64,000 bases of DNA, taken from Hypomyces perniciosus (lineage: Eukaryota; Ascomycota; Sordariomycetes; Hypocreales; Hypocreaceae). Each line of letters opens with the position of its first letter. Within the stretch, counting starts at the first letter, position 1. A program made the translations under genes and the position numbers. The notes under the pieces are model-generated. The model did not search any database. It was not told where the DNA came from and saw only the letters and a program-made list of their open reading frames with translations. Where the stretch lies: positions 558,001 through 622,000 of the forward strand of contig SPDT01000009.1 of the NCBI GenBank assembly GCA_008477525.1, in the 5' to 3' direction. Below, one piece after another: positions 21,050 to 53,541 of this stretch.

Positions 21050-23000
21050 AGCACCATTAACCTTTTCCTGGGTTATCTTAAAGGGACTAAGTAACTGGGA
21101 TTTTTAAATCAATTCTATTAAACAGCTAGCCATTAATTATAATATTTAGAGATATATTAATCTAGATATTAATAATAAGCCTATAGTTATTAAGCCTAAG
21201 GCACCTACTCTTTAAATAATTTAGCTAGAAATAAAAAATATTACTAATCTTAATACTAATAAATTATCTAAGCTTAAGCTTTTAAAGAAAAAATATAATT
21301 TTTAATATAAATAGTGTAATAACTATTTTAAAGCCTTAAAAAGGCTTATAATTTAAATTTAAAAGATAATTGGTTCCTAGAATTATATAATCTTGAAAAA
21401 AGTAATAATCTTTAAATAACTTTAAACTCTTAAAGACTAATACTAAATAGCAGGATAAATATAATATAATTTTTATTAATTAAATTTTTAATTGTTAATA
21501 TAGGTTAAAGATAAATATACTTAAAAGAGTATTTTCTGCTTTTTAAAGAGAAAAGGCTACTCTTTTATTAAAAAATAAATTAAATATATACTCCTAATAC
21601 CTTTAAAGTAATACTATTAAAATAAATAAAAATTACTACTTGAATAGATAGTCTATACGCATATATAGAAATTATCCTAGCTTATAATTCTTCGATTTCT
21701 ATAAATAATAACTTAAGTAGTAATAACAGCAGCAATAACAGCAGCAGCTTTATTATTACTATATAATAGTTATAACAGCAGCTATAATAAAGGCGACTAT
21801 AAAGGCAAAGATATAGCAGTAGTAGTAAAGCTGCTATATAAGAATTATTATAATAGTTATAAGTGCAGCCGAGAGGTTAGCCCTAGGGCTAACCACCTAT
21901 ATATTAGCTTAACCCTAGTATATAATAGGTCCCTTTATAATTAAAGATTAAGAGCTTGCAGCTAATATTATAAGGGCCTAGAATATCCAGTTAATGTTTT
22001 AAAGGCTATAATAGGTTGCAGGTTATAAAAACTTTTAGCTAATAAAGCTATATCTTTGCTATATCTCTGCTATAGTAGCAGCATTATCCTAGATTAAAGA
22101 GATTAAAGAGATTATATTAGCTATATAGCCGGAAAAATAGTTGGCTAAGGGAATATATATAAATAAATAGAATATATACTAAAGACCTATTATTTAAAGT
22201 AATTTAATAGTGTTAAAATAGCTAATTAAAGATACTATATTATATCCTATAATTAAGTGTTATATAAAGGAGTAAGTTATATATTAAGGGAAATTGCTGG
22301 GAGAATTTTGCAGCTATATATAAACTATCTATTCCAGTAGCAATTTTTGTTTATTCCAATAGTATTACTTTACTTCTATAGCTAAAATTATTAATATTGT
22401 GCCTATTATTATTTTATTAAATTAATTTAACTATTAAGCTAAGTTTTAAATGCTTAAATATAATAAAAAGTTAATAAAAAGCTTAAAAATAATAAACTTA
22501 AAGAATATATTAATAAAGTTAAAGTATAGGTTAAAATATTAAAGTTTTTAATTAAAGAAAACTTAAAATAATAGGAAAAATAAAAGGAATTAATTATTTT
22601 AAGTATTTCCTTTATACTAAAAATACTAAAAATAATAAAAGTATTATTTACAATAGCTATTTATTTATTAAAAGACTTTTTTATTTTAAATCTAGGTTAA
22701 ACTTTTATACTTATAATAATAAAGCTAGATTTATTAAAAATACCTTTTAATTAGTATTAAAACTATTATATAAATGGAATATATATCCTAAGATTTAAAG
22801 ATATAGCGATATTATTATTAAAATCAGTCCTAAAGCTAGTTTTAAATTACTAAATATTATATATATTCTTAACTTTTATATAAATATAGCCTTATTAAAC
22901 CTATTTCTAAAAGAAAGATATTATTAAAATTTATTTATTAGTAAAGCTTTAATTAATAGATATTACAGTATAAAAAGGCAGGTTAAGGTAAATGTTTTTA
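21050..23000 (+). mobile_element. RIP-degraded Ty1/copia element (gag and protease traces)
   Basis: After the LTR, a gag-like start reads LKGLSNWDF ... RYINLDINNKPI near 21,085-21,190. Downstream of the inserted TIR element, translation near 22,676-22,735 reads like ILNSGSTLHICNNKARF with D changed to N, the copia protease active-site region. Near 22,860-22,930 a block like ILYIPNFYINIALL follows, matching the usual text after the protease. Integrase and RT are missing; the element ends or is cut near 23,000. The 21,607-22,369 transposon interrupts it. Confidence 0.65.
21607..22369. mobile_element. 763-bp internally deleted TIR element inserted in copia
   Basis: Terminal inverted repeats of about 46 bp begin agtaatactattaaaataaa and the inner end reads agatagt. 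The internal sequence matches the right third of the 5,423-8,416 element. Its position between copia gag and protease traces shows it jumped into an older copia copy. Both have since suffered RIP. Confidence 0.7.
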
Positions 23001-23145
23001 TTATACTATAGAGAGCGAGAAAGCTTTAAGGCTTTATAGAAAGCTATAGCTAGGAACGCGTTAAGGCCTAGTTACATAACTGGAGCTTACGTAATAAGGC
23101 GTCAATATTGCATTACAGTTAATACTATAATAATACCCCCCTTCT
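22978..23145 (-). repeat. Diverged copy of the gypsy-associated LTR
   Basis: The minus-strand reading follows the same block order as the LTR copies at 673-855 and 15,283-15,440: it begins caggttaaggta and ends ataataccccc. Identity is lower than among the other copies, so the call is tentative. Confidence 0.45.
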
Positions 23146-24299
23146 TTATTATACTATTTACCTGTAAATAGCTATATTATTTATATAAATCGAAATTTTA
23201 AGTAATTTATTTTAATACTTTTAATATAAAGGCAAATAAGGTAAATTATATAGTTTTTAATATTAGCGATATATAGTTTAGTTATAGGCTTTAATACAGT
23301 ATAGTCTTTAATTAGCGCTTTATAAGCTTTAGTTTCTTTCTAGCTATTTCCTTTTTTTCCTTTTTTATAATTCCTTTTAATACCTATTATAATAAACTTA
23401 GCTTTTTTAAGTTTCTTTTATAAAAGTTTTATATTACCTTTTCTTAGCTTTATAAATCTTTAATTAATTATTATATAGAAGTATAATATTTCCATTTAAT
23501 AAAGTAGTACAATCTATTATTATTATAGTAATCTAAAAGCACTTTTAATTTTTATTTCTTTTATATTTTATTTATATTTCTTTTTCTAGTATCCTGCTTT
23601 AAATATTCTTTAATTTAACTTTATTAATTTTTTTTATTTAAAGTGCAATAAAGTAGCTGTTTTAAGTTATAAAAAGGAGTTATATAAAACTAAAAGAGTC
23701 TTTATATTTTTTAATAAACTAATAGCGCAGGCTTATAAATATACCTTTATTATTATATAAAGTCCTGCCTATTTATTATTTAGCTTTTTATTAACTAGTT
23801 AATTTTTATATTTTATATATTAATAAAAACTTTTTGCCTAATAATATAGACTAGTAATACCTCTTTTTATATATTTATATTTTCTTCATATTTTTTTCTT
23901 AAAGCTTTAGTAAAGGCCTTTAACTATATAATAATATATTTAAATTATTTAATAATAGTATTCGTGTAAAAAAACTCTTTTTTTTTTACTGCAGAAAAGT
24001 TTAGCAGGCAAGGGTATAAAGGCTTTATCCTTAAATAAAGGTTAAAACTATAATTAGTGAAAAACAGTAATATACTAGTAATCTTAAATATTATATTATT
24101 TATAGCAAATTTAGCTAATAAAAGCTAATAAACCTAGTTATTTTAATAGAAGATAATAAAAGTTTATAGGTATTATTTTATATTTATATTAATTCTTTTA
24201 ACCTAGCTATTAATCTTAAAGTAAAAAGCTAATAACTATTTTAATATAACTTTTAATTACTTTAAAAGTTATTCCTAAAATTTTAATATAAACTATATA

Positions 24300-35482: not shown

Positions 35483-36043
35483 GGTGACTGCAGTACCAGG
35501 ACTGATGCCACTTCGTCTTTATAGCGCATTAATGTCGAGACGGGTTTACGCACTCATTTTGGCTAGTCATGCTTATGCTAAATCTCTCCCCAATGTTCCT
35601 ATGTGGTTTATAGCTTCAACCGCAAAACTGCAGAATATCGCAATGCCCTTAACCTCGAAAACCCCAAGTCTTGTGGACTCTGCTCTCTCAGTTAATATTG
35701 GTGGGGTGTTGGCTAAGGTATAATCAAGCCATTTTTAGCGTTTAAAGCGGTCAACTCCACCGGCATAAACCTCCAGTTCTGGCCCAAAAAGAGAAGGCCC
35801 AATGACGTCGCCCCCTAAACAGCCGAAAATGGCTGAAAGGTGGTGCGTTGCTGTGACATGGGTCTGAGAATTGTGGACACAACTCTCAGCCATTAATGAG
35901 GACCAAGTGTGCTTTCCGCCAAATATGGCTGAACCTAGGCTGACTACGGAGTAGTGTTTAAGATGAAGCGTGTACCCATTCCCTTGGTCAAGTGGTCATA
36001 CCAAATTTTCACATTGCAAAGCAACACACAACATCATTATGTA
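35483..36043. other. Intergenic upstream of the rhodopsin-like gene
   Basis: Contains one TACGGAGTA motif (35,945-35,953) and the repeated word ggctga (gaaaatggctgaa, aatatggctgaac). No gene supported; the frame at 35,475-35,723 is a shadow of exon 1 and its upstream DNA. Confidence 0.5.
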
Positions 36044-36503
36044 CAGTAGAGGCCGAAATGAGTGTCCGCGATTTGCGTGTTTAGAAACTCTCTGGGCACG
36101 GATCAGACAGCTGCCTGCTGTAGCTAGTACTATAGAATGAGGCTTGTCAGGTTATTCGTTAACATTAGCCTAACAAAAGCCATTTGTGGCTTTTTAATGT
36201 TATAAATTGGGATTTTGATCTTTCTTATTCTTAAAAGTCAGAAACAGCAACTTTAAAACACAGCACTTATGGATCTGAAGGTTTTTCCATTGATAAAGAG
36301 CCTAGGGCGACTTTCGGCCGTTTCTTGCCGTTCCTCTCTGTATAGCAATGACGAAATTATTCTTATGTAATGTTAGGTAAACACTAAGAAGCACGGTTAG
36401 GCTGTGTTTATAGACGTATCGCCTACAGAAATCAAAGGCACGGTCTGTGCCCAGAAACTTTCTATACATACAAAATGCGGACACTCATTTCGGCCTCTAC
36501 TAT
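36044..36503. mobile_element. MITE, TA-flanked, copy 1
   Basis: The left end cagtagaggccgaaatgagt and right end in inverse form a terminal inverted repeat of about 26 bp (with gtccgc). It is flanked by TA on both sides, the Tc1/mariner/pogo target duplication. About 460 bp, no coding capacity. Internal text (gccatttgtggctttttaatgtta) is shared with copies at 38,700-39,166 and 39,696-40,147. Confidence 0.9.
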
Positions 36504-38699: not shown

Positions 38700-39166
38700 T
38701 ACAGTACATAGAGGCCGAAATGAGTGTCCGCGATTTGCGTGTTTAGAAACTCTCTGGGCACGGACCAGACAGCTGCCTGCTGTAACTAGTACTATAGAAT
38801 GAGGCTTGTCAGGTTATTCGTTAACATTAGCCTAACAAAAGCCATTTGTGGCTTTTTAATGTTATATGTTAAGATTTTGATCTTTCTTATTCTTAAAAGT
38901 CAGAAATAGCAACTTTAAAACACAGCAATTATAGATCGAAAAATTTGTCTATTAATAAAGAGCCTACAGCGACTTATGGCTGTTTCTTGCCGTTCCCCTC
39001 TATATAGCAACGGCGAAATTGTTATTATGTAATGTTAGTAAATATTAAGAATGTACAGTTGGGCTAAGTTGATAAAAGTATCGGCTAAGGAAATCAGAGG
39101 CATGGTCTGTGCCCAGAAACTTTCTATACATACAAAATGCGGACACTCATTTCGGCCTCTACTGTA
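38700..39166. mobile_element. MITE, TA-flanked, copy 2
   Basis: Nearly identical to copy 1 in sequence and orientation, including gttattcgttaacattagcc and the right terminal repeat ending ggcctctactgta. A 3-bp difference occurs at the left terminus (acagtacatagagg). The high similarity of copies 1 and 2, and absence of RIP-like decay, point to recent movement. Confidence 0.9.
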
Positions 39167-39695: not shown

Positions 39696-40147
39696 ACAGT
39701 AGAGGCCGAAATGGGTGTCCGCATTTTGTATGTATAGAAAGTGTCTGGGCACAGACCATGCCTCTGATTTCTGTAGCCGATACTTCCATAAACACGCCTT
39801 CTTAATGTTTACCTAATATTACATAAGAACAATTTCGCCATTGTCATACAGAAGGGAACGGCAAGAAACAGCCGAAAGTCGCTCTAAGCTCTGTATTAAT
39901 AGAAAAGGTTTTAGATCGATAAGTGCTGTGTTTTTAAGTTGCTGTTTCTGACTTTTAAGAATAAGAAAGATCAAAATCTTAGCATATAACATTAAAAAGC
40001 CACAAATGGCTTTTGTTAGGCTAATGTTAACGAATAACCTGACAAGCCTCATTCTATAGTACTAGTTACAGCAGGCAGCTGTCTGGTCCGTGCCCAGAGA
40101 GTTGCTAAACACGCAAATGGCGGACACTGGTTTCGGCCGCTACTGTA
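39696..40147. mobile_element. MITE, TA-flanked, copy 3 (inverted)
   Basis: The same family as copies 1 and 2 but inserted in the opposite orientation: its internal sequence is the reverse complement of theirs. Ends tacagtaga and ctactgta give TA target sites. It begins only about 38 bp after the stop codon of the cysteine-rich gene, so it may supply transcript end sequence. Confidence 0.9.
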
Positions 40148-43869: not shown

Positions 43870-44046
43870 CTCTTGAGAGATTCTGTTGGACACATTTTTA
43901 CTTTTTTGTGTCAACCAGTTGCCACGCTAACCTTTGAGATCCTGTTAGATGCACGGGAGTGGCAATTGCAGCATGATGGGGTCATTGTATTGTTGATGAT
44001 GCTTGGGAGAGTGGAAACCAGCCAGTTTTTATTATGGATAATTTAA
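43870..44046 (+). pseudogene. Possible C-terminal fragment of the element ORF at 44,419-45,069
   Basis: The plus-strand frame reads VIVLLMMLGRVETSQFLLW near 43,980-44,037. This parallels GIVTELHVLLGCVDSAQFCN in the ORF at 44,419-45,069, and in each case a related non-coding unit follows. I take it as the tail of another unit of the same integrated element. The similarity is short and by eye. Confidence 0.4.
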
Positions 44047-44079
44047 TGAGAATGTTTATTGATGATAGTGTTTTTGTAA

Positions 44080-44320
44080 TTATTATTTATTATTGTGACT
44101 GCGTGATGTTATTTTATGAGGGTGGTGATAGAGTCACTTTTACAGATAAACACCAAAGAACACGATCCTGGGCACGGGGACCCTTGCGACGACAAACACG
44201 AGTGGGCGAGACGGAACAACTGGGAACCAATGGCGATCTGGGGTCGAGAAATCTGAGAAAGATTTTCCAGGACGAAAAACGAGAGAGCGTTTTGAGGTAC
44301 TTTTACACGACGGAGGAGTG
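44080..44320. repeat. Common region X of the Rep element
   Basis: Shares blocks with 45,425-45,780 and 47,411-47,690: cacttttacagataaa, gggcacggggacccttgcga, gagtgggcgaga, gaaagattttcc-ggacga. This is the non-coding unit that precedes each coding segment of the element. Confidence 0.7.
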
Positions 44321-44418
44321 TGAAGATGACACTTGAGTGTGTTTAACTGACATTGAATGTCGGAGCAGTATTACCATTACAGAATAGTTTCGCATTTGCC
44401 AGGCAATTATTATTAGAC

Positions 44419-45069
44419 ATGGAGTCAGTCAAGATGGAATCTTGTTATGAGACAGAGCACGATGAGGCTCTCTTTTCCTCTTCTATTGAGATGTCATCTT
44501 CATTGCCAGGGTCGGCTTGTTCTTGGGACAGTGCGGTTTATCATTCGTCTTTTACTAACTTGAATTGCATCGCGTGTGCGTGTGAATTGTGTGGCAAGGA
44601 GGTTTATGAAGGTGTTAGACACTCTGTAGGTGACTGTTTCTTTCCACTTTGGAGGAGCACCAACAATGTGTGGACAGTGGACGAACCATCCTGTTTGACG
44701 CTTGTGCTGTCTTTCGTGAGTTCGGCTACAATGGATTACTTTTGTAAGTTGTTATCTGAGACGATACTTGTTAAAGCAGACGGGAGGATGTCGTTGCCTT
44801 GTTTTTCCAAGAAGGCGCGGTCTTGTAGTGATCCTGCGGTAGATGGAGAGTGTTGCATGTTACTTCTTCTTTATCCTGAGCATGGGTTTCAGGGTGAATG
44901 GACTGAGAGTGGGATAGTGACTGAGCTTCATGTGCTATTGGGATGCGTGGACAGTGCACAGTTCTGTAATTTGTTCTGGGGTGTCAAGATGGATGCAGAG
45001 GTTGGAGTGACGTACATGTCTTCGTTGGCACATTGGTTGAGCGTAGAGCGGCACAATGGGAACAGATGA
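44419..45069 (+). CDS. Unknown ORF of the integrated Rep element, 216 aa
   Basis: The first ATG of an open frame that reaches back to 44,353. Product starts MESVKMESCYETEHDEALFS and contains a cysteine-rich stretch (CIACACELCGKEVYEG, residues about 52-67) that could bind metal, then hydrophobic segments, and ends LAHWLSVERHNGNR. No signal peptide. No family recognised; capsid, movement or regulatory protein cannot be told apart. It is preceded by region X and followed by the same gcccatgctagactatgaa block that follows the Rep gene (45,235 and 47,319), so both genes sit in equivalent cassettes. Codon choice is T/G-rich, unlike neighbouring host genes. Confidence 0.5.
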   Translation: MESVKMESCYETEHDEALFSSSIEMSSSLPGSACSWDSAVYHSSFTNLNCIACACELCGKEVYEGVRHSVGDCFFPLWRSTNNVWTVDEPSCLTLVLSFVSSATMDYFCKLLSETILVKADGRMSLPCFSKKARSCSDPAVDGECCMLLLLYPEHGFQGEWTESGIVTELHVLLGCVDSAQFCNLFWGVKMDAEVGVTYMSSLAHWLSVERHNGNR

Positions 45070-45224
45070 ATTGAAAGTCGGGAGGAGATTTTATCCAAGT
45101 GTCGAACCATTAGTTGGAGTTTGTAGACTGAGTGATGGATGAGTTATGACTACTTTAGAAATAGATCGTGTGTTTCCGTTTTAGGATGTTAGTTGGCTTC
45201 ACTTAGTGCAGATAGACAGTGCAG

Positions 45225-45845
45225 CTCCCGCAGGGCCCATGCTAGACTATGAAAGAGATCCCGAAGGGGTGCAGAGCGGCCGTAGGACGCGATGTGAATA
45301 GTTACACTTCATGTTTATTGTTTTAGATATTTAATATTATTGTTCTTACTTGAGATGTTTATTTTATTTGATGATTGAGTACATGTGATGTTGATCTGTA
45401 GAGAGTATCTATGTGTATTTTATTTTATTAAAGTGGTTGTGTGATATTATTATGAGAGAGTGTTGGCGATAGCATCACTTTTACAGATAAAAATTAGAGT
45501 CCAAGATCTCGGGCACTGGGGACCCTTGCGACGAGAGGAGCAAGCAGTGTGAGCGTGGCGAGCACTGAGGAAGAGCGCAGCGATGACCAACACGAACGTG
45601 GTGAGTGTGTGCACACGAGTGGGCGAGTGAGTGAGTAGACGAACGTTGAGTGAGGTTCGGAGAAACGGAACAACCAGGAGCCACTGGCGAGCTGGGGTCA
45701 CAAATCTTGAGAAAGATTTTCCGGGACGAAATTTCAGGATGGAATTTGATGTCACTTTTTGCTGTACGGAGTATGGCGAGTGACCGCGGGGACCCGATTT
45801 CCTTATGTTTGGTAGTAAGGGTCCCCCATCCCCAGTGCCCCAAAG
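45225..45845. repeat. Common region A of the Rep element
   Basis: Consists of a left part (cccatgctagactatgaa to the hairpin at 45,292-45,314), an AT-rich part (45,315-45,470), and a right part (45,471-45,780) that matches regions X and B, including gtgagcgtggcgagcactg and ctgtacggagtatggcgag. The right part is bounded by an imperfect inverted repeat (gggcactggggacccttg at about 45,508 and aagggtcccccatccccagt at 45,818). It lies directly upstream of the Rep gene and probably holds its promoter and origin. Confidence 0.75.
45292..45314. other. Candidate origin hairpin, copy A (degenerate)
   Basis: Arms atgtgaa and ttcatgt enclose tagttacac. Two mismatches in the arms relative to copy B at 47,381-47,402. 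Proposed as a replication-origin-like hairpin because of its place upstream of Rep; not a canonical nonanucleotide. Confidence 0.35.
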
Positions 45846-46094
45846 CGCACGAAAAGGGTGTAGACCAGCAAATAGAGTCAGGTGACAGGATGGAGTGTGA
45901 CTAGTACCTAATGCGGACAGACGAGTGGACACGAGGACCGCAGAACCAGATGCGATTGGTTTACCTTTCAGCAGATCCACAAACGGCCGTACATAGTGAG
46001 AGGACGATTACTTAGGGGACAGTCCCCCGCCCCTTTTTTTCTTTCCTTTCAATCTTGGATTGTATCTTTTTGCGAGAGCATTGCAGACATTACC

Positions 46095-47281
46095 ATGGAT
46101 ACAGAGTGTATAGTTGGGTCGCCTGTTAGCGATAGCGGGTATGACACGGTTGATCGTCAGTCAAGTGAGGTAATTCAGGCAAGCCAGGCAAGTGAGGCAG
46201 GTGAGGCAAGTGATGCACCTGGTGTGCTTAAGGAAGGTAGGGAGTTTGAACTTCAAGGTTTTACCTTTTTTGTGACATACTCGCAGAGTCGAGTTAGTGA
46301 TAAGGAAGAGTTTCATAGGTGTTTGCGAGAGTCACTTGAACCTCATCTACCTGTCGGGGCCGGCACAGAGAAGGCTACTGTTCAGATTTTCGGTAGTAAG
46401 GAACTTCACGCGGATGGGATGCCGCACTATCACGTATTACTCTTTTTTTCGAAAAGAGTGCATTGGAGGCGTGCTCGTTCTTGTCTTTCAGTTTGGGTTG
46501 ATGTTAATGGTAGTCGAGAGATCGACACTCAATCTATTTACATTCGGAAGAAGCGAGATCGAGAGTCGAACGCTCAGTGGTTTGCATGTGTTGAAGCGTA
46601 CATCGCCAAGGAGGGAGATGTATTCGGAGCTAGAATTAGCGACACTGGAAGCAAAGCTCAAAAGGATTAGATACTGAAGAAGATTATTGATGCAGAATAT
46701 AGGGAGGAGGCCGATTCCTTGATCAAAGAACATTTCCCGCTGAAGTATATCTTCGGTGCAGTTGGTATTCAGTGTTTTCTGAGTGGCAAGAAGGGTCGTC
46801 CTGCTCAAGCACATGTTCCTGACTATGAGCGTCTTCCTTGGGTTGTGCCAAAAGCGATGCTAGAGTGGCGGGAGAGCAACTTTCCTCCTCCCAATGGTGG
46901 AAGGCCTGTTCCTTTAGTGATTGTTGGAGAGCCAAGATGTGGAAAGACTGAGTGGGCGTTGTCTTGGGGGGGAGGCCAGCTACGATGACTGGCAACTGGA
47001 GTGTGGATGAGCTTCTAAAACCCGAGGTCACACATCTCGTCTTGAACGATATCAACTTGAAGATTTTCCCCAACAAGCGTGATTTTGCTGGGTGTCAGAA
47101 ATACATTACAGTTACAGGAAAGTATCGGAAGAGGCAAACCATTACGTGGGGGAGGCCCGTCGGTTGGACTTGTAATAGAGACAAGGACGTAACTAAAGAT
47201 AAAGTGATTGGAGAGTACTTGAAGAGATCAGGAGTTGTGGTGAGAGTTGGAAGTAGGAAGTTATATAGAAATATTAAATGA
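46095..47281 (+). pseudogene. CRESS-DNA replication initiator (Rep): HUH endonuclease plus SF3 helicase, interrupted
   Basis: From ATG 46,095 a variable N-terminus of about 55 residues precedes rolling-circle motifs in order: motif I FFVTYSQS (about residue 58), motif II MPHYHVLLFF (HxH, about 110) and motif III YIAKEGDVFG (about 169, catalytic Tyr and Lys). A TAG stop at 46,668-46,670 interrupts the frame; the same frame then continues to a Walker A box GEPRCGKTEWALS (about 46,927). A shift at a seven-G run (46,967-46,973) moves reading to another frame carrying the Walker B-like HLVLNDI, the B' motif TGKYRKRQ and the motif C-like WTCNRD. Rep proteins of this kind nick and unwind small circular ssDNA genomes (genomoviruses, geminiviruses, related plasmids). 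This chromosomal copy is broken twice. It is flanked by common regions A and B. Confidence 0.85.
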
Positions 47282-47317
47282 TTTTGTTAAATTTGTTCCA
47301 ACTGTAATGTGATCGCC

Positions 47318-47690
47318 GGAGGCCCATGCTAGACTATGAAATGATACCCCGAAGGGAGTGCAGACTGGCCGAAGGACAGGATGTGAATATGTTACTTCAC
47401 GTTGTATTAAACTCCAAGATCTGGGCACGGAGACCCCCTGCGACTGGAGGGAGCGGGCAGTGTGAGCGTGGCGAGCACTGTGGAAGAGCGCAGCGATGAC
47501 AAACACGAACGTGGTGAGTGTGCGAGGTTCGGAGAAACTCAGTCGAGAGAGTCGAAACGGAACAACAGAGAGCCAATGGCGAGCTGGGGCAGTAAAACCT
47601 GAGAAAGATTTTCCGGGATGATATTTCAGAATGGAATTTCAGGTCACTGTTGGCTGTACGGAGTATGGCGAGCGACATCTGGGACCCGAT
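47318..47690. repeat. Common region B of the Rep element
   Basis: Right-hand direct repeat of region A: cccatgctagactatgaa, gatgtgaata, aagatctgggcac, gtgagcgtggcgagcactg, gaaagattttccggga, ctgtacggagtatggcgag. It lacks about 150 bp of AT-rich sequence present in A. Similarity ends near 47,690, which may mark the element border. Confidence 0.75.
47381..47402. other. Candidate origin hairpin, copy B
   Basis: Arms atgtgaa and ttcacgt pair over seven positions (one G.T) around the loop tatgttac. The loop end ttac and the stem-loop layout recall Rep nicking sites, where the cut lies before AC. Function is inferred from structure and position only. Confidence 0.4.
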
Positions 47691-48139
47691 TTCTACATAT
47701 GTGCTCCAGATTGAGTCAAGAATACTAGTTAGTATTACTTCATAGATGTACCGCATTTCAGGAGGATATACGGAGTACCCCCGATGAGATAGAAGTGACA
47801 GGCTGGGACCTCTTTCAAATCGGCTATCCAAAATGGCCGATTTTGTTTACTGTCCCGGATCCAATGCCACACACGGCGTCCGGGCCATAAATATAGCGAC
47901 CAGAAAGCTTCTAGCACTCTGGAGTACGTGGTATTGTATCACGACCCACAACAACGGGCATGTACATAACCAAATTGTGTGATTCTCCCTAAGCGAGCTT
48001 CACAGTTCAGATCAGAGGTGAACCACCAAAAGAGCAATAGTGCCAGGCGCGCAGCGCGGCTCTTTGTGTGTGGGAACCAACAAGCACCTGGAGATCTACC
48101 AACAAGGACCACAACACTCGCAGGAATGTCGTTCAGAGC
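47691..48139. other. Intergenic between Rep element and copia remnant
   Basis: Contains the inverted repeat aatacta-gt-tagtatt (about 47,726-47,741), TACGGAGTA at 47,767, and a segment around 47,965-48,070 (tgtgtgattctc ... gtgccaggcgcgcagcgcg) shared with 51,318-51,390. No gene recognised. Confidence 0.5.
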
Positions 48140-51040: not shown

Positions 51041-53089
51041 TGTACAGTCATGAACATATTTGGGCTTGATTCCATTTTGTGAAGAACCTCCGTGTTAGGT
51101 TTTGCCAGAACCCAAGCGGCTGCCACGATGTCTAGGACATCTATGTCATCACCACCGCTTGCCCTGATGTTGTGGGCGATCAATCAATATGGCCCTGGAA
51201 GCTATCTACCGCCCGGCGCATCCAGATCTTGGATATCATTCTCGGTAATACATACATACATAGTGAGCGATGGGATCAGTGTCCACATTACTTTACAAAT
51301 TGTTCCCCTAGCTGTATGTACCATCGGTACATTTGTGTGATTCTCAAAGTCGGCCCCCAAGTGCAGTGCCAGGTGCGCAGCGCGCCTCTTTGTCACAGCT
51401 ACATACATACGGTTATGAGCATAAACGGCTTCCTCTTAAATTATACTGTTGAAAGAGGCCAGGTATGGAGGATTTTAGCGTGCGCTGTCCTATATACTTG
51501 TAGGTACTTAAAAATACCTCCCCAGCTAACCAGTTTGAACCAACAGTCGTGCATTTAGGCCCAAATATTTCCTCCACTTTTGGCTTTTTGGCTATAACTA
51601 AGTACGTGATTGTATCCTAAAGTATCCATTACGAAACTTCAATGATGGAGACTGTGTGCAGAGAGGAAGCCATTTATGCATATACCTGTACTGTGCTCGA
51701 ATAAGTGAAACCTTCAAAATTCCCTGTAATCCGATTTCAGGAGTAACTTGATGCGATTTGGTGTCCCGGTGTCCCCCGTTCGCAAGGATCGGCTTGATGA
51801 TGCACTGTCGAAGTGTAGCAAAGTCATCTGTGTCCGATTGTCGGCTGCGGATTGGACACTGCGAGTAGTACTAGAGTAACATGTATCTAGGTACAAGCCT
51901 TAACCGGATGGGGTGAACCCAAGTTAGGAATACAAAGTTCTCGGTGGGTCAGGTAGAAATTGGCGGCTTTGGCAGGGGCCTTTGTACAACTTGTACACAA
52001 GGCAACGTCTATAACGGAGAGCACTAGCGAATTTACGGAGTGCATGGCACAAGCACGTAGGCACGGGATTTCTTGTACAATTCCTCTGCACGGTCCTGTT
52101 CATATTAGCTTGTACTCCGTACAGTGTGAGCTATCCCTTTGTGTGTGCAAAGGGAGCTAGGATACCTACGGAGTACAAATCAGTGGGATTAAAAGTAGTA
52201 CCCTTAGGCCGCTCACCCCGTGAAAGTCGGCCCCCAAAAGGGCGAGCCTACGGGCGGGTACTCATTACCAAGTACTCCGCAGTGACCGAAAGCTTTCTGT
52301 TCACGAAAGCGTGTTGAGTGCCCACCAACTCATGCTGCTGACGCGCGACCCACCTTTCATGAGAGTTGCGGATGATCTCCTGGACCTATGCTATTCTTGA
52401 AGATGATTACGAATAGCACTTGGTCGTACTGACGGAGGATCTGAAGTGATTTGACGCCATGCAACGCACGCATTATTAGATGGCATGGCGGTGCAACCGG
52501 ACAGGACGGTGGCCGAGTCTCTGGTCGCTCGGCGTACGAGCATTTACCCAGCCTGTCTGCCCTGATGGACGGCCAGTTCCGATGACACAAGATCTTTAGA
52601 GCTAATTTAGTACATAGTAGTAATCAACTTCGCTAGTGTCATCGTCACTCCTCGTCAGGCGACAAGGCAACAGCCAAGCCAACAGGCGGTGTCGTCAAAA
52701 CTTATCAACTTTTAGCAAGACATGACTCACAATGACACTATCACCAAATCAATACGCATGCACTCTATTGCAGCAATAATTCATCTTATTCACACGTCTC
52801 TGCTGTTATTACACAGTTCGGTCCTCCAGTCCTCCTACAATCCCTTCGGGGTATCAGCTGCCAATCATGACTGGACTTCGGCAGCTTGTCTATTTATCTG
52901 ACCAAAGTCAATGTAGGCTACAAATGAGACCATTATCATATCCATATTAGGCAACAACTCCAAAACACCAGCGCTCCACTATACAAACCAAAAAAGGAAA
53001 GAAATTCCCAACAATCAAACAGTCTGTGTCCTAACACCAAATGCCACTTTAACTTTCGCTTCCTCGGAACATCTGCTCTCGGTACATTC
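51041..53089. other. Gene-poor repeat-rich intergenic stretch
   Basis: Contains the 51,318-51,390 segment shared with 47,965-48,070, three TACTCCGTA-type motifs (50,944 at the border, 52,113, 52,167) and several small frames with no family resemblance. Nothing else supported. Confidence 0.5.
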
Positions 53090-53293
53090 TCACCAAGCTC
53101 CCGCAACAGGTCTCCAGCCTCCCAGGCTAATTAAAGCAAGCTGCTTTACAACAGCATCTAGTCTCTGTAGTATGGCTATACCATCAGCCACGGCGGGTAT
53201 ATTTGCGCACCGCTCCAAGTGCTCCGCAGCATCCCAGAAATGGTCTGCCGCTGCATGAAAATCGGGTTGACGGAAAGCTGCATCCTGTTCCAT
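53090..53293 (-). CDS. Small hypothetical protein or first exon, 67 aa
   Basis: MEQDAAFRQPDFHAAADHFW then LERCANIPAVADGIAILQRL reads as an ordered helical protein, like the N-terminus of short fungal hypothetical proteins. The C-terminus LGGWRPVAGAW looks less ordered and may be read-through of an intron. Function unknown. Confidence 0.45.
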   Translation of the reverse strand: MEQDAAFRQPDFHAAADHFWDAAEHLERCANIPAVADGIAILQRLDAVVKQLALISLGGWRPVAGAW

Positions 53294-53541
53294 AGTCGTA
53301 CAAACCGATCACTGCCTCGGGGTGTCACCGTCGTATGTCACTATCGGACCGTAGAAAATAAAAGCGCGTCTCACGAGTAGATGTAGGAGAGAGGAAGCTC
53401 CACTAGTAAGAAACAGGATACCCTCGATATCAAGCAATTTAAGAATCCCGTTTTCCAACTAAATGAGCAAAATTGAGGTCTGTTTAAATACATAGAAGTC
53501 GGCGGAGATAACAACCTAGGAGTCGACAGGGTAACCGAGAG
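53294..53541. other. Intergenic
   Basis: Region between divergent-looking small gene and the exonuclease gene's 3' end. 53,450-53,515 (gttttccaactaaatgagc, tgtttaaatac) is repeated at 62,945-63,010. Confidence 0.5.

What the first reader, a model, noticed from the sequence alone, without database searches (positions are those of the whole stretch)
43870..47700. Integrated CRESS-DNA element with two alternative coding cassettes between shared non-coding regions
Seen: a Rep gene (46,095-47,281) lies between direct repeats A (45,225-45,845) and B (47,318-47,690). A second ORF (44,419-45,069) lies between region X (44,080-44,320) and region A, and both ORFs are followed by the same gcccatgctagactatgaa block. 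A fragment resembling the second ORF precedes X. Known: bipartite geminiviruses and multi-component circular ssDNA replicons share a common region between components, and Rep-catalysed integration can give tandem copies. Inference: a fungal circular ssDNA replicon with at least two components (or one circle with duplicated intergenic regions) integrated in tandem. The partner ORF matches no family I know.
Basis: partly seen in the sequence, partly recalled or inferred. Interest (0 to 1): 0.88.

Follow-up and report, generated by a model that had tools for sequence, protein, structure and literature searches.

The report
Fungal multi-cassette virus-like mobile element
The chromosome of this fungus-like genome carries several copies of a virus-like element made of interchangeable one-gene blocks that share the same replication start; it resembles an inherited form of the rare multi-segment DNA viruses of fungi.

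Summary
The repeat architecture is real and extends beyond the window. Region A has 20 reported matches in the 44-Mb genome, all at 7 loci (counts are lower bounds); a degenerate cargo remnant at window 52.8-53.4 kb is an eighth place. The loci are built from cassettes of about 1.6-1.9 kb: left end AAGGGTCCCC.., leader, one ORF, conserved 3' block, AT-rich spacer, common region, right end ..ATGTTTGGT. The ORFs differ: a geminivirus/genomovirus-like Rep (window copy broken; an intact copy exists on contig 5), five small ORFs without detectable similarity to each other, and an intron-bearing gene E. Right and left ends meet in a stem-loop in 3 of 5 internal junctions; in 5 of 5 left-end/host junctions the element starts after RT, at AAGGG. 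One insertion interrupts a CHAT-domain gene at a host sequence nearly matching the element's loop. The best reading is chromosomal copies of a Rep-mobilised, multi-cassette CRESS replicon, closest in layout to the segmented genomoviruses FgGMTV1 and BcssDV1. No capsid gene was recognised and circular forms could not be tested, so virus versus capsid-less transposon stays open. ORF2 has no detected homologue; the claimed ORF2-like fragment before X is not supported.

The parts
44086..44330 (+). X: partial common region of a lost upstream cassette
   Evidence: blastn to A (77%, 85%) and to L023 (44199-44330, 89%)
44419..45069 (+). ORF2, small ORF (216 aa), gene of the first window cassette; its left end and leader are lost
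   Evidence: ORF; none of 131 candidates scored E <= 0.01; only its own place in the genome; no Pfam or NCBIfam match
45234..45302 (+). 3' block of the ORF2 cassette
   Evidence: repeats D7/D10; a similar block in L020, L021, L022, L023, L024, L025
45493..45813 (+). Common region A ending in right end ..CGATTTCCTTATGTTTGGT
45788..45826 (+). Putative origin stem-loop: GGGGACCC...GGGTCCCC arms around a loop with ATGTTTGGTAGT^AA; inferred nick between 45816 and 45817
   Evidence: fold; nick position inferred from 5 left-end/host junctions
45817..46094 (+). Left end (AAGGGTCCCC..) and leader of the Rep cassette
46095..47281 (+). Degenerate Rep gene (gemini/genomovirus-like HUH endonuclease + helicase), frame broken in two places
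   Evidence: an intact relative lies on contig 5
47321..47391 (+). 3' block of the Rep cassette
   Evidence: repeats D7/D10
47406..47693 (+). Common region B; its right end is degenerate
52835..53418 (-). Degenerate remnant of the gene-E cassette (63% identical at protein level to L021, one stop) with a piece of 3' block

Best explanation
These are chromosomal copies of a geminivirus/genomovirus-like CRESS replicon family whose genes sit on interchangeable one-gene cassettes (Rep, several small ORFs, gene E) sharing origin, leader parts, 3' block and common region. Inferred mechanism: Rep binds the common region, nicks the joined right-end/left-end stem-loop at T^AA (TGGTNNT^AA), and joins the freed ends to host DNA, preferring sequences that resemble the origin loop. 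Successive or multimeric insertions leave head-to-tail arrays. Shown: cassette anatomy, common ends, insertion junctions, Rep family, selection on Rep. Inferred: nicking by Rep, the target preference, circular intermediates, descent from a multi-segment virus.
For: Cassette parts at 7 loci; a leader query adds no new locus. Cassettes with both ends: two in L020, two in L024. Left-end motif: 7 matches, 0 for the reversed control. The two bases before AAGGG are RT in 5 of 5 left-end/host junctions and in 5 of 5 internal junctions. Host flank against the loop ATGTTTGGT: 8/9 in L024 (P 0.0002) and 7/9 in L025 right (P 0.003). In L024, joining the flanks at T^A gives one open frame across the site; right flank CHAT, E 8.8e-14. 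The junction folds as a stem-loop in the window, L020 and L022. Rep relatives: 11 of 335 candidates, among them Hirsutella minnesotensis and Aphanocladium album; their profile matches 6 solved Rep sequences. Window versus contig-5 Rep dN/dS 0.27 over 390 codons, compared piece by piece.
Against: No capsid gene recognised and no exogenous relative in three IMG/VR scans. Three of five host flanks do not significantly resemble the loop: L025 left P 0.10, L022 left P 0.31, L020 left P 0.90. The loop pattern was defined after seeing the junctions, and the L025 right flank could be a diverged right end rather than host. Loop-like sequences are hardly commoner in the genome than the reversed control (86+73 vs 83+67). 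L021 and L024 internal junctions do not form the main stem. L023's right end is not followed by AAG. TAATATTAT, the genomovirus motif, stands at 45332-45340 but not at the mapped ends. L023 is a region-A copy without ORF. Circular DNA was not observable.
Confidence: 0.67

Rival explanations
1. A capsid-less two-unit rolling-circle transposon: the mobile unit is one element of about 3.7 kb holding a small-ORF cassette plus a partner cassette (Rep in autonomous copies, E or other DNA in non-autonomous copies). The cassettes were never separate virus segments.
For: Both Rep loci have the order small ORF then Rep, and the six two-cassette loci pair a small-ORF-type cassette with another unit: Rep in L020 and the window, E in L021 (where the small-ORF-type unit keeps no clear ORF) and L022, Rep-type leader in L025, foreign DNA in L024 (my parsing). 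No capsid recognised. A geminivirus-like transposon is reported in Tuber (PMC3198968, passages read).
Against: Cassettes look like complete replicon units each with its own origin, and L022 and L025 join them head to head, which a fixed two-unit element would not need. Segmented fungal relatives with one gene per 1.7-kb circle exist (PMC10731770, parts 1-3 of 8 read).
Confidence: 0.3
2. Tandem duplication and divergence inside the chromosome: one old insertion was copied by segmental duplication and the ORFs then diverged beyond recognition.
For: Window and L020 share about 2.4 kb: 89% of 2348 aligned bases, 83% over 2525 columns with gaps.
Against: No shared host flank appears in the comparison of window and L020, and the ends are exact at several loci. 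ORF2 and the L020 small ORF have no detectable similarity while the adjoining non-coding DNA is well conserved, which simple divergence does not explain.
Confidence: 0.08
3. X, A and B are one dispersed MITE that happened to land around a Rep fossil.
For: The common region is bounded by inverted GGGCAC..GGGGACCC / GGGTCCCC..GTGCCC motifs, as a MITE could be. L023 is a region-A copy without ORF or left end.
Against: 6 of 7 loci carry cassette parts beyond region A, and the reported matches are confined to 7 loci. Host junctions fall at the left and right ends of the cassette.
Confidence: 0.04

Closest known systems
[quoted passage not shown] parts 1-3 of 8 and passages read)
   Same: One gene per segment of about 1.7 kb, common regions of about 260 and 38 nt shared by the segments, stem-loop origin with a non-canonical nonanucleotide (TACTCTT^CA), hypothetical proteins of 225 and 270 aa, genomovirus-type Rep
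   Different: Exogenous, encapsidated circles with a capsid gene; here chromosomal arrays, no capsid gene recognised, more kinds of small ORF, plus gene E
Fusarium graminearum gemytripvirus 1 (FgGMTV1), tripartite (PMC11708013; passages read)
   Same: Rep and accessory proteins on separate segments in a fungus; DNA-C ORFs without database homologues
   Different: Infectious virus with a capsid segment; no chromosomal form mentioned in the passages read
Geminivirus-like transposon of Tuber melanosporum (PMC3198968; passages and abstract read)
   Same: Geminivirus-like Rep in a multi-copy fungal mobile element without obvious target duplication
   Different: That element has 37-bp terminal inverted repeats and transposase ORFs; here left and right ends differ (outward left ends on both sides only in L022 and L025) and no transposase match was found in the cassette ORFs scanned
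Nanoviridae and bipartite begomoviruses (recalled)
   Same: Genes on separate components sharing a common region
   Different: Plant viruses with a canonical nonanucleotide; chromosomal cassette arrays of this kind not known to me
Helitrons / IS91 (recalled)
   Same: Rolling-circle HUH elements, defined ends, little or no target duplication, possible capture of host DNA
   Different: Rep here is geminivirus-type; ends are not TC..CTRR

Membership tests
Genomoviridae (multi-segment, gemytripvirus-like) | Rep of the gemini/genomovirus type (HUH endonuclease + helicase) | tested here: met
   Intact relative and 11 homologues; FVTYSR, PHYHV, YxAK, GxxxxGKT, VLNDI, WTCN stretches in A1 (motif roles recalled); Gemini_AL1_M over cut-off in 5 of 6 homologues scanned (P0004, P0006, P0008, P0009, P0010; not P0001). 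No tree against reference Reps was made
Genomoviridae (multi-segment, gemytripvirus-like) | Capsid protein gene | tested here: inconclusive
   No Pfam match for ORF2 or the L020, L022, L024 small ORFs; the L025 small ORF was not scanned (one search failed); no capsid model was searched genome-wide and capsids diverge fast
Genomoviridae (multi-segment, gemytripvirus-like) | Stem-loop origin shared by the segments | tested here: inconclusive
   Stem at the right-end/left-end junction in 3 of 5 internal junctions (window, L020, L022), not in L021 or L024
Genomoviridae (multi-segment, gemytripvirus-like) | Canonical TAATATTAT nonanucleotide at the origin | tested here: not met
   Mapped ends lie at TGGTNNT^AA; TAATATTAT at 45332-45340 is outside a mapped end; BcssDV1 too is non-canonical
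Genomoviridae (multi-segment, gemytripvirus-like) | Circular encapsidated ssDNA | not testable with these tools
   Chromosomal assembly only
Geminivirus-like transposon of Tuber type | 37-bp terminal inverted repeats and transposase ORFs | tested here: not met
   L020 and L024 have unlike left and right ends; L022 and L025 have outward left ends; no transposase match in the cassette ORFs scanned
Helitron | TC...CTRR ends | tested here: not met
   Ends read AAGGGTCCCC..ATGTTTGGT
Helitron | RepHel protein | not tested
   No RepHel search was run; the replication gene seen is geminivirus-type
MITE | Short element dispersed independently of its coding partner | tested here: not met
   Reported matches confined to 7 loci, 6 of them with cassette parts beyond region A; L023 is the exception

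The most novel reading that the evidence does not exclude
A so far undescribed class of eukaryotic rolling-circle mobile elements: a CRESS Rep inserts units into host sequences that mimic its own origin, and the units carry exchangeable one-gene cassettes, including apparently captured host DNA (L024 second unit: element ends around about 2.5 kb with a 418-aa gene of a multi-copy host family).
Probability: 0.25. Interest if true: 0.85.

Novelty: new variant of a known kind. Interest (0 to 1): 0.62.

Why it matters
Multi-segment ssDNA viruses of fungi are known from very few cases, and how such segmentation arises is open. Chromosomal arrays that keep origins, cassette borders and host junctions give a fossil record of segment exchange, let the nick site be read from insertion junctions, and link segmented CRESS viruses to rolling-circle transposons. 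The unlike small ORFs in one slot beside Rep are candidates for fast-evolving accessory proteins.

Tried and rejected
Dispersed-MITE reading: disfavoured, with L023 as the exception. Upstream ORF2-like fragment: not significant. Homology among the small ORFs: none by single-sequence hhalign, none in the shown part of a blastp table. Structure prediction of ORF2 and of the L020 small ORF: mean pLDDT 31.5 and 39.4, not usable, so no fold search was run. Rfam on L020, L021, L022, L024 at gathering scores: no match. Exogenous relatives in IMG/VR: none confirmed in 3 scans. PF00910 in the genome: no match at E 0.001. Divergent Reps: only the two known loci with a Hirsutella Rep as query; one weak 32% match on contig 3 (E 0.03) left unresolved. 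A DNA-level paralogue of the left flank of the L024 target as an independent empty site: none found. A simple target duplication at L024 was dropped: junctions at T^A explain both sides without one. That gene E belongs to a widespread host family is recall only; the search found one relative (P0012, 1 of 136 candidates). The three database searches went to Rep, ORF2 and E, so the other four small ORFs were not searched there.

Full report
OBSERVATION. The window is G000:C9:558001-622000 of a 44.0-Mb, 23-contig genome. Direct repeats A, B and X, the identical 21-nt block after both ORFs, and a Rep-like region are present as described. The Rep region is not one open frame: one in-frame stop and one frame break split it in three. 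The ORF2-like fragment before X is not supported (score 37; 22 of 1000 shuffles reach it).

GENOME-WIDE. Region A as query gives 20 reported matches (counts are lower bounds), all at 7 loci: the window, C5 (L020), C8 (L021), C9 at 645 kb (L022), two on C22 (L023, L024) and C10 (L025, which matches only the 3' block). A 24-nt left-end motif with up to 3 mismatches has 7 matches, all in these loci, against 0 for the reversed control; the window and L022 left ends lie beyond that limit. A 543-nt leader query adds no locus. Gene E occurs three times, the third a remnant at window 52.8-53.4 kb with a piece of 3' block.

ANATOMY. Reading the loci side by side, a cassette is: left end AAGGGTCCCCGATCCCCGTGCCCC; leader; one ORF; 3' block (..GTGCAG..GGCCGTAGGAC..); AT-rich spacer; common region beginning GGGCACGGGGACCCTTGCGAC; right end CCCGATTTCTATATGTTTGGT. 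I parse 14 cassettes or parts, plus X. Those with both ends measure about 1811 and 1902 (L020), 1596 and 2695 (L024, the last with foreign DNA); the window Rep cassette, with a degenerate right end, 1880. L023 keeps only region A and about 50 nt before it. Genes: Rep in the window and L020 (intact, 402 aa from the listed start); small ORFs in the window (216 aa), L020 (208 aa from its first ATG), L022 (157 aa, apparently truncated), L024 (143 aa), L025 (195 aa from the listed start); gene E with apparent introns in L021, L022 and the window remnant. The four small ORFs scanned have no Pfam match; the L025 one was not scanned. ORF2 has no homologue (0 of 131 candidates); the other four were not searched there. 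In 3 of 14 cassettes the leader holds an inverted copy of the 3' block.

ENDS AND INSERTION. Internal right-end/left-end junctions read ATGTTTGGT-AGT-AAGGG (window), -AAT- (L020, L021), -TAT- (L022), and a G-to-A altered form in L024. The arms GGGGACCC/GGGTCCCC fold as a stem in the window, L020 and L022, not in L021 or L024. In 5 of 5 left-end/host junctions the two bases before AAGGG are RT (GT, GT, AT, AT, AT). CRESS Reps cut after T in TAATATT^AC (recalled) and TACTCTT^CA in BcssDV1, so I infer TGGTNNT^AA as the nick. Host flanks resemble the loop strongly in L024 (8/9, P 0.0002) and L025 right (7/9, P 0.003), not in L025 left, L022 left or L020 left (P 0.10, 0.31, 0.90), against 94,770 background positions. 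The pattern was chosen after inspection, and the L025 right flank might be a diverged right end. Genome-wide, loop-like sequences are about as common as the reversed control. In L024 the insertion separates a stretch that I read as TPR repeats (Pfam gave no match for it) from a CHAT domain (E 8.8e-14); joining the flanks at T^A gives one open frame across the site. The CHAT match starts at profile position 100 of 289, so that host gene may also have lost sequence.

REP. Eleven relatives (46-58% identity over the endonuclease part) come from Hirsutella minnesotensis (2), Aphanocladium album (1) and unnamed sources (8). A profile from them and a window piece matches 6 distinct solved Rep sequences, best 1l2m/1l5i at E 1.7e-5; PMC10731770 names 1l5i as TYLCV Rep. 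Window and contig-5 Rep differ with dN/dS 0.27 (dS 0.16, 390 codons, three pieces compared apart), so selection acted for at least part of their separation. Gene E, L021 versus L022, gives 0.73 on only 12 changes. No relative was confirmed in IMG/VR. No tree against reference virus Reps was made.

PARTNER UNITS. The second L024 unit has a left end with about 120 nt of leader and the last 50 nt of the right end around about 2.5 kb that holds a 418-aa gene with 14 matches in the genome, itself included and some being pieces, best other 65%. This looks like captured host DNA, but the paralogues are too distant to prove a recent capture, and nested insertion plus deletion is possible.

LITERATURE. 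Segmented fungal genomoviruses: BcssDV1 (PMC10731770, parts 1-3 of 8 and passages) and FgGMTV1 (PMC11708013, passages). Endogenous geminivirus-like Reps in fungi and a Tuber transposon: PMC3198968 (passages and abstract). PMC8262958 and PMC6668415: passages. In nine searches I saw, by titles and abstract starts, no paper describing chromosomal multi-cassette CRESS arrays in fungi; two searches listed only 15 of 332 and 12 of 661 papers, and the library lacks most subscription papers.

VERDICT. The cassette architecture is secure. Rep-driven insertion at origin-like sites is supported but inferred. Virus versus capsid-less transposon is open.

Noticed in passing
window 1-24000: Very AT-rich block (mostly 10-25% GC) next to normal sequence (about 47% GC), as in RIP-type compartments.
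   Followed up: no
window 36042-36491, 38705-39153, 39708-40147; L023 1614-2064: A 450-bp dispersed repeat: the three window copies are 85-88% identical to the L023 copy; unrelated to the cassettes.
   Followed up: no
window 22956-23579; L025 4275-4897: A 624-bp repeat, 86% identical, shared with contig 10.
   Followed up: no
L024 1590-2846: A 418-aa gene without Pfam match, of a family with 14 matches in the genome, inside an element unit.
   Followed up: partly
G000:C2 1695-13329: A 16-nt motif recurs five times every 2.9 kb at the start of contig 2, suggesting a long tandem repeat.
   Followed up: no
L026 / G000:C3:1452065-1452265: Weak Rep-like match (32%, E 0.03) with three stops, perhaps an older Rep fossil or chance.
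   Followed up: no
L022 2253-3157 and L025 1440-3342: Cassettes joined head to head, giving left ends facing outward on both sides.
   Followed up: partly
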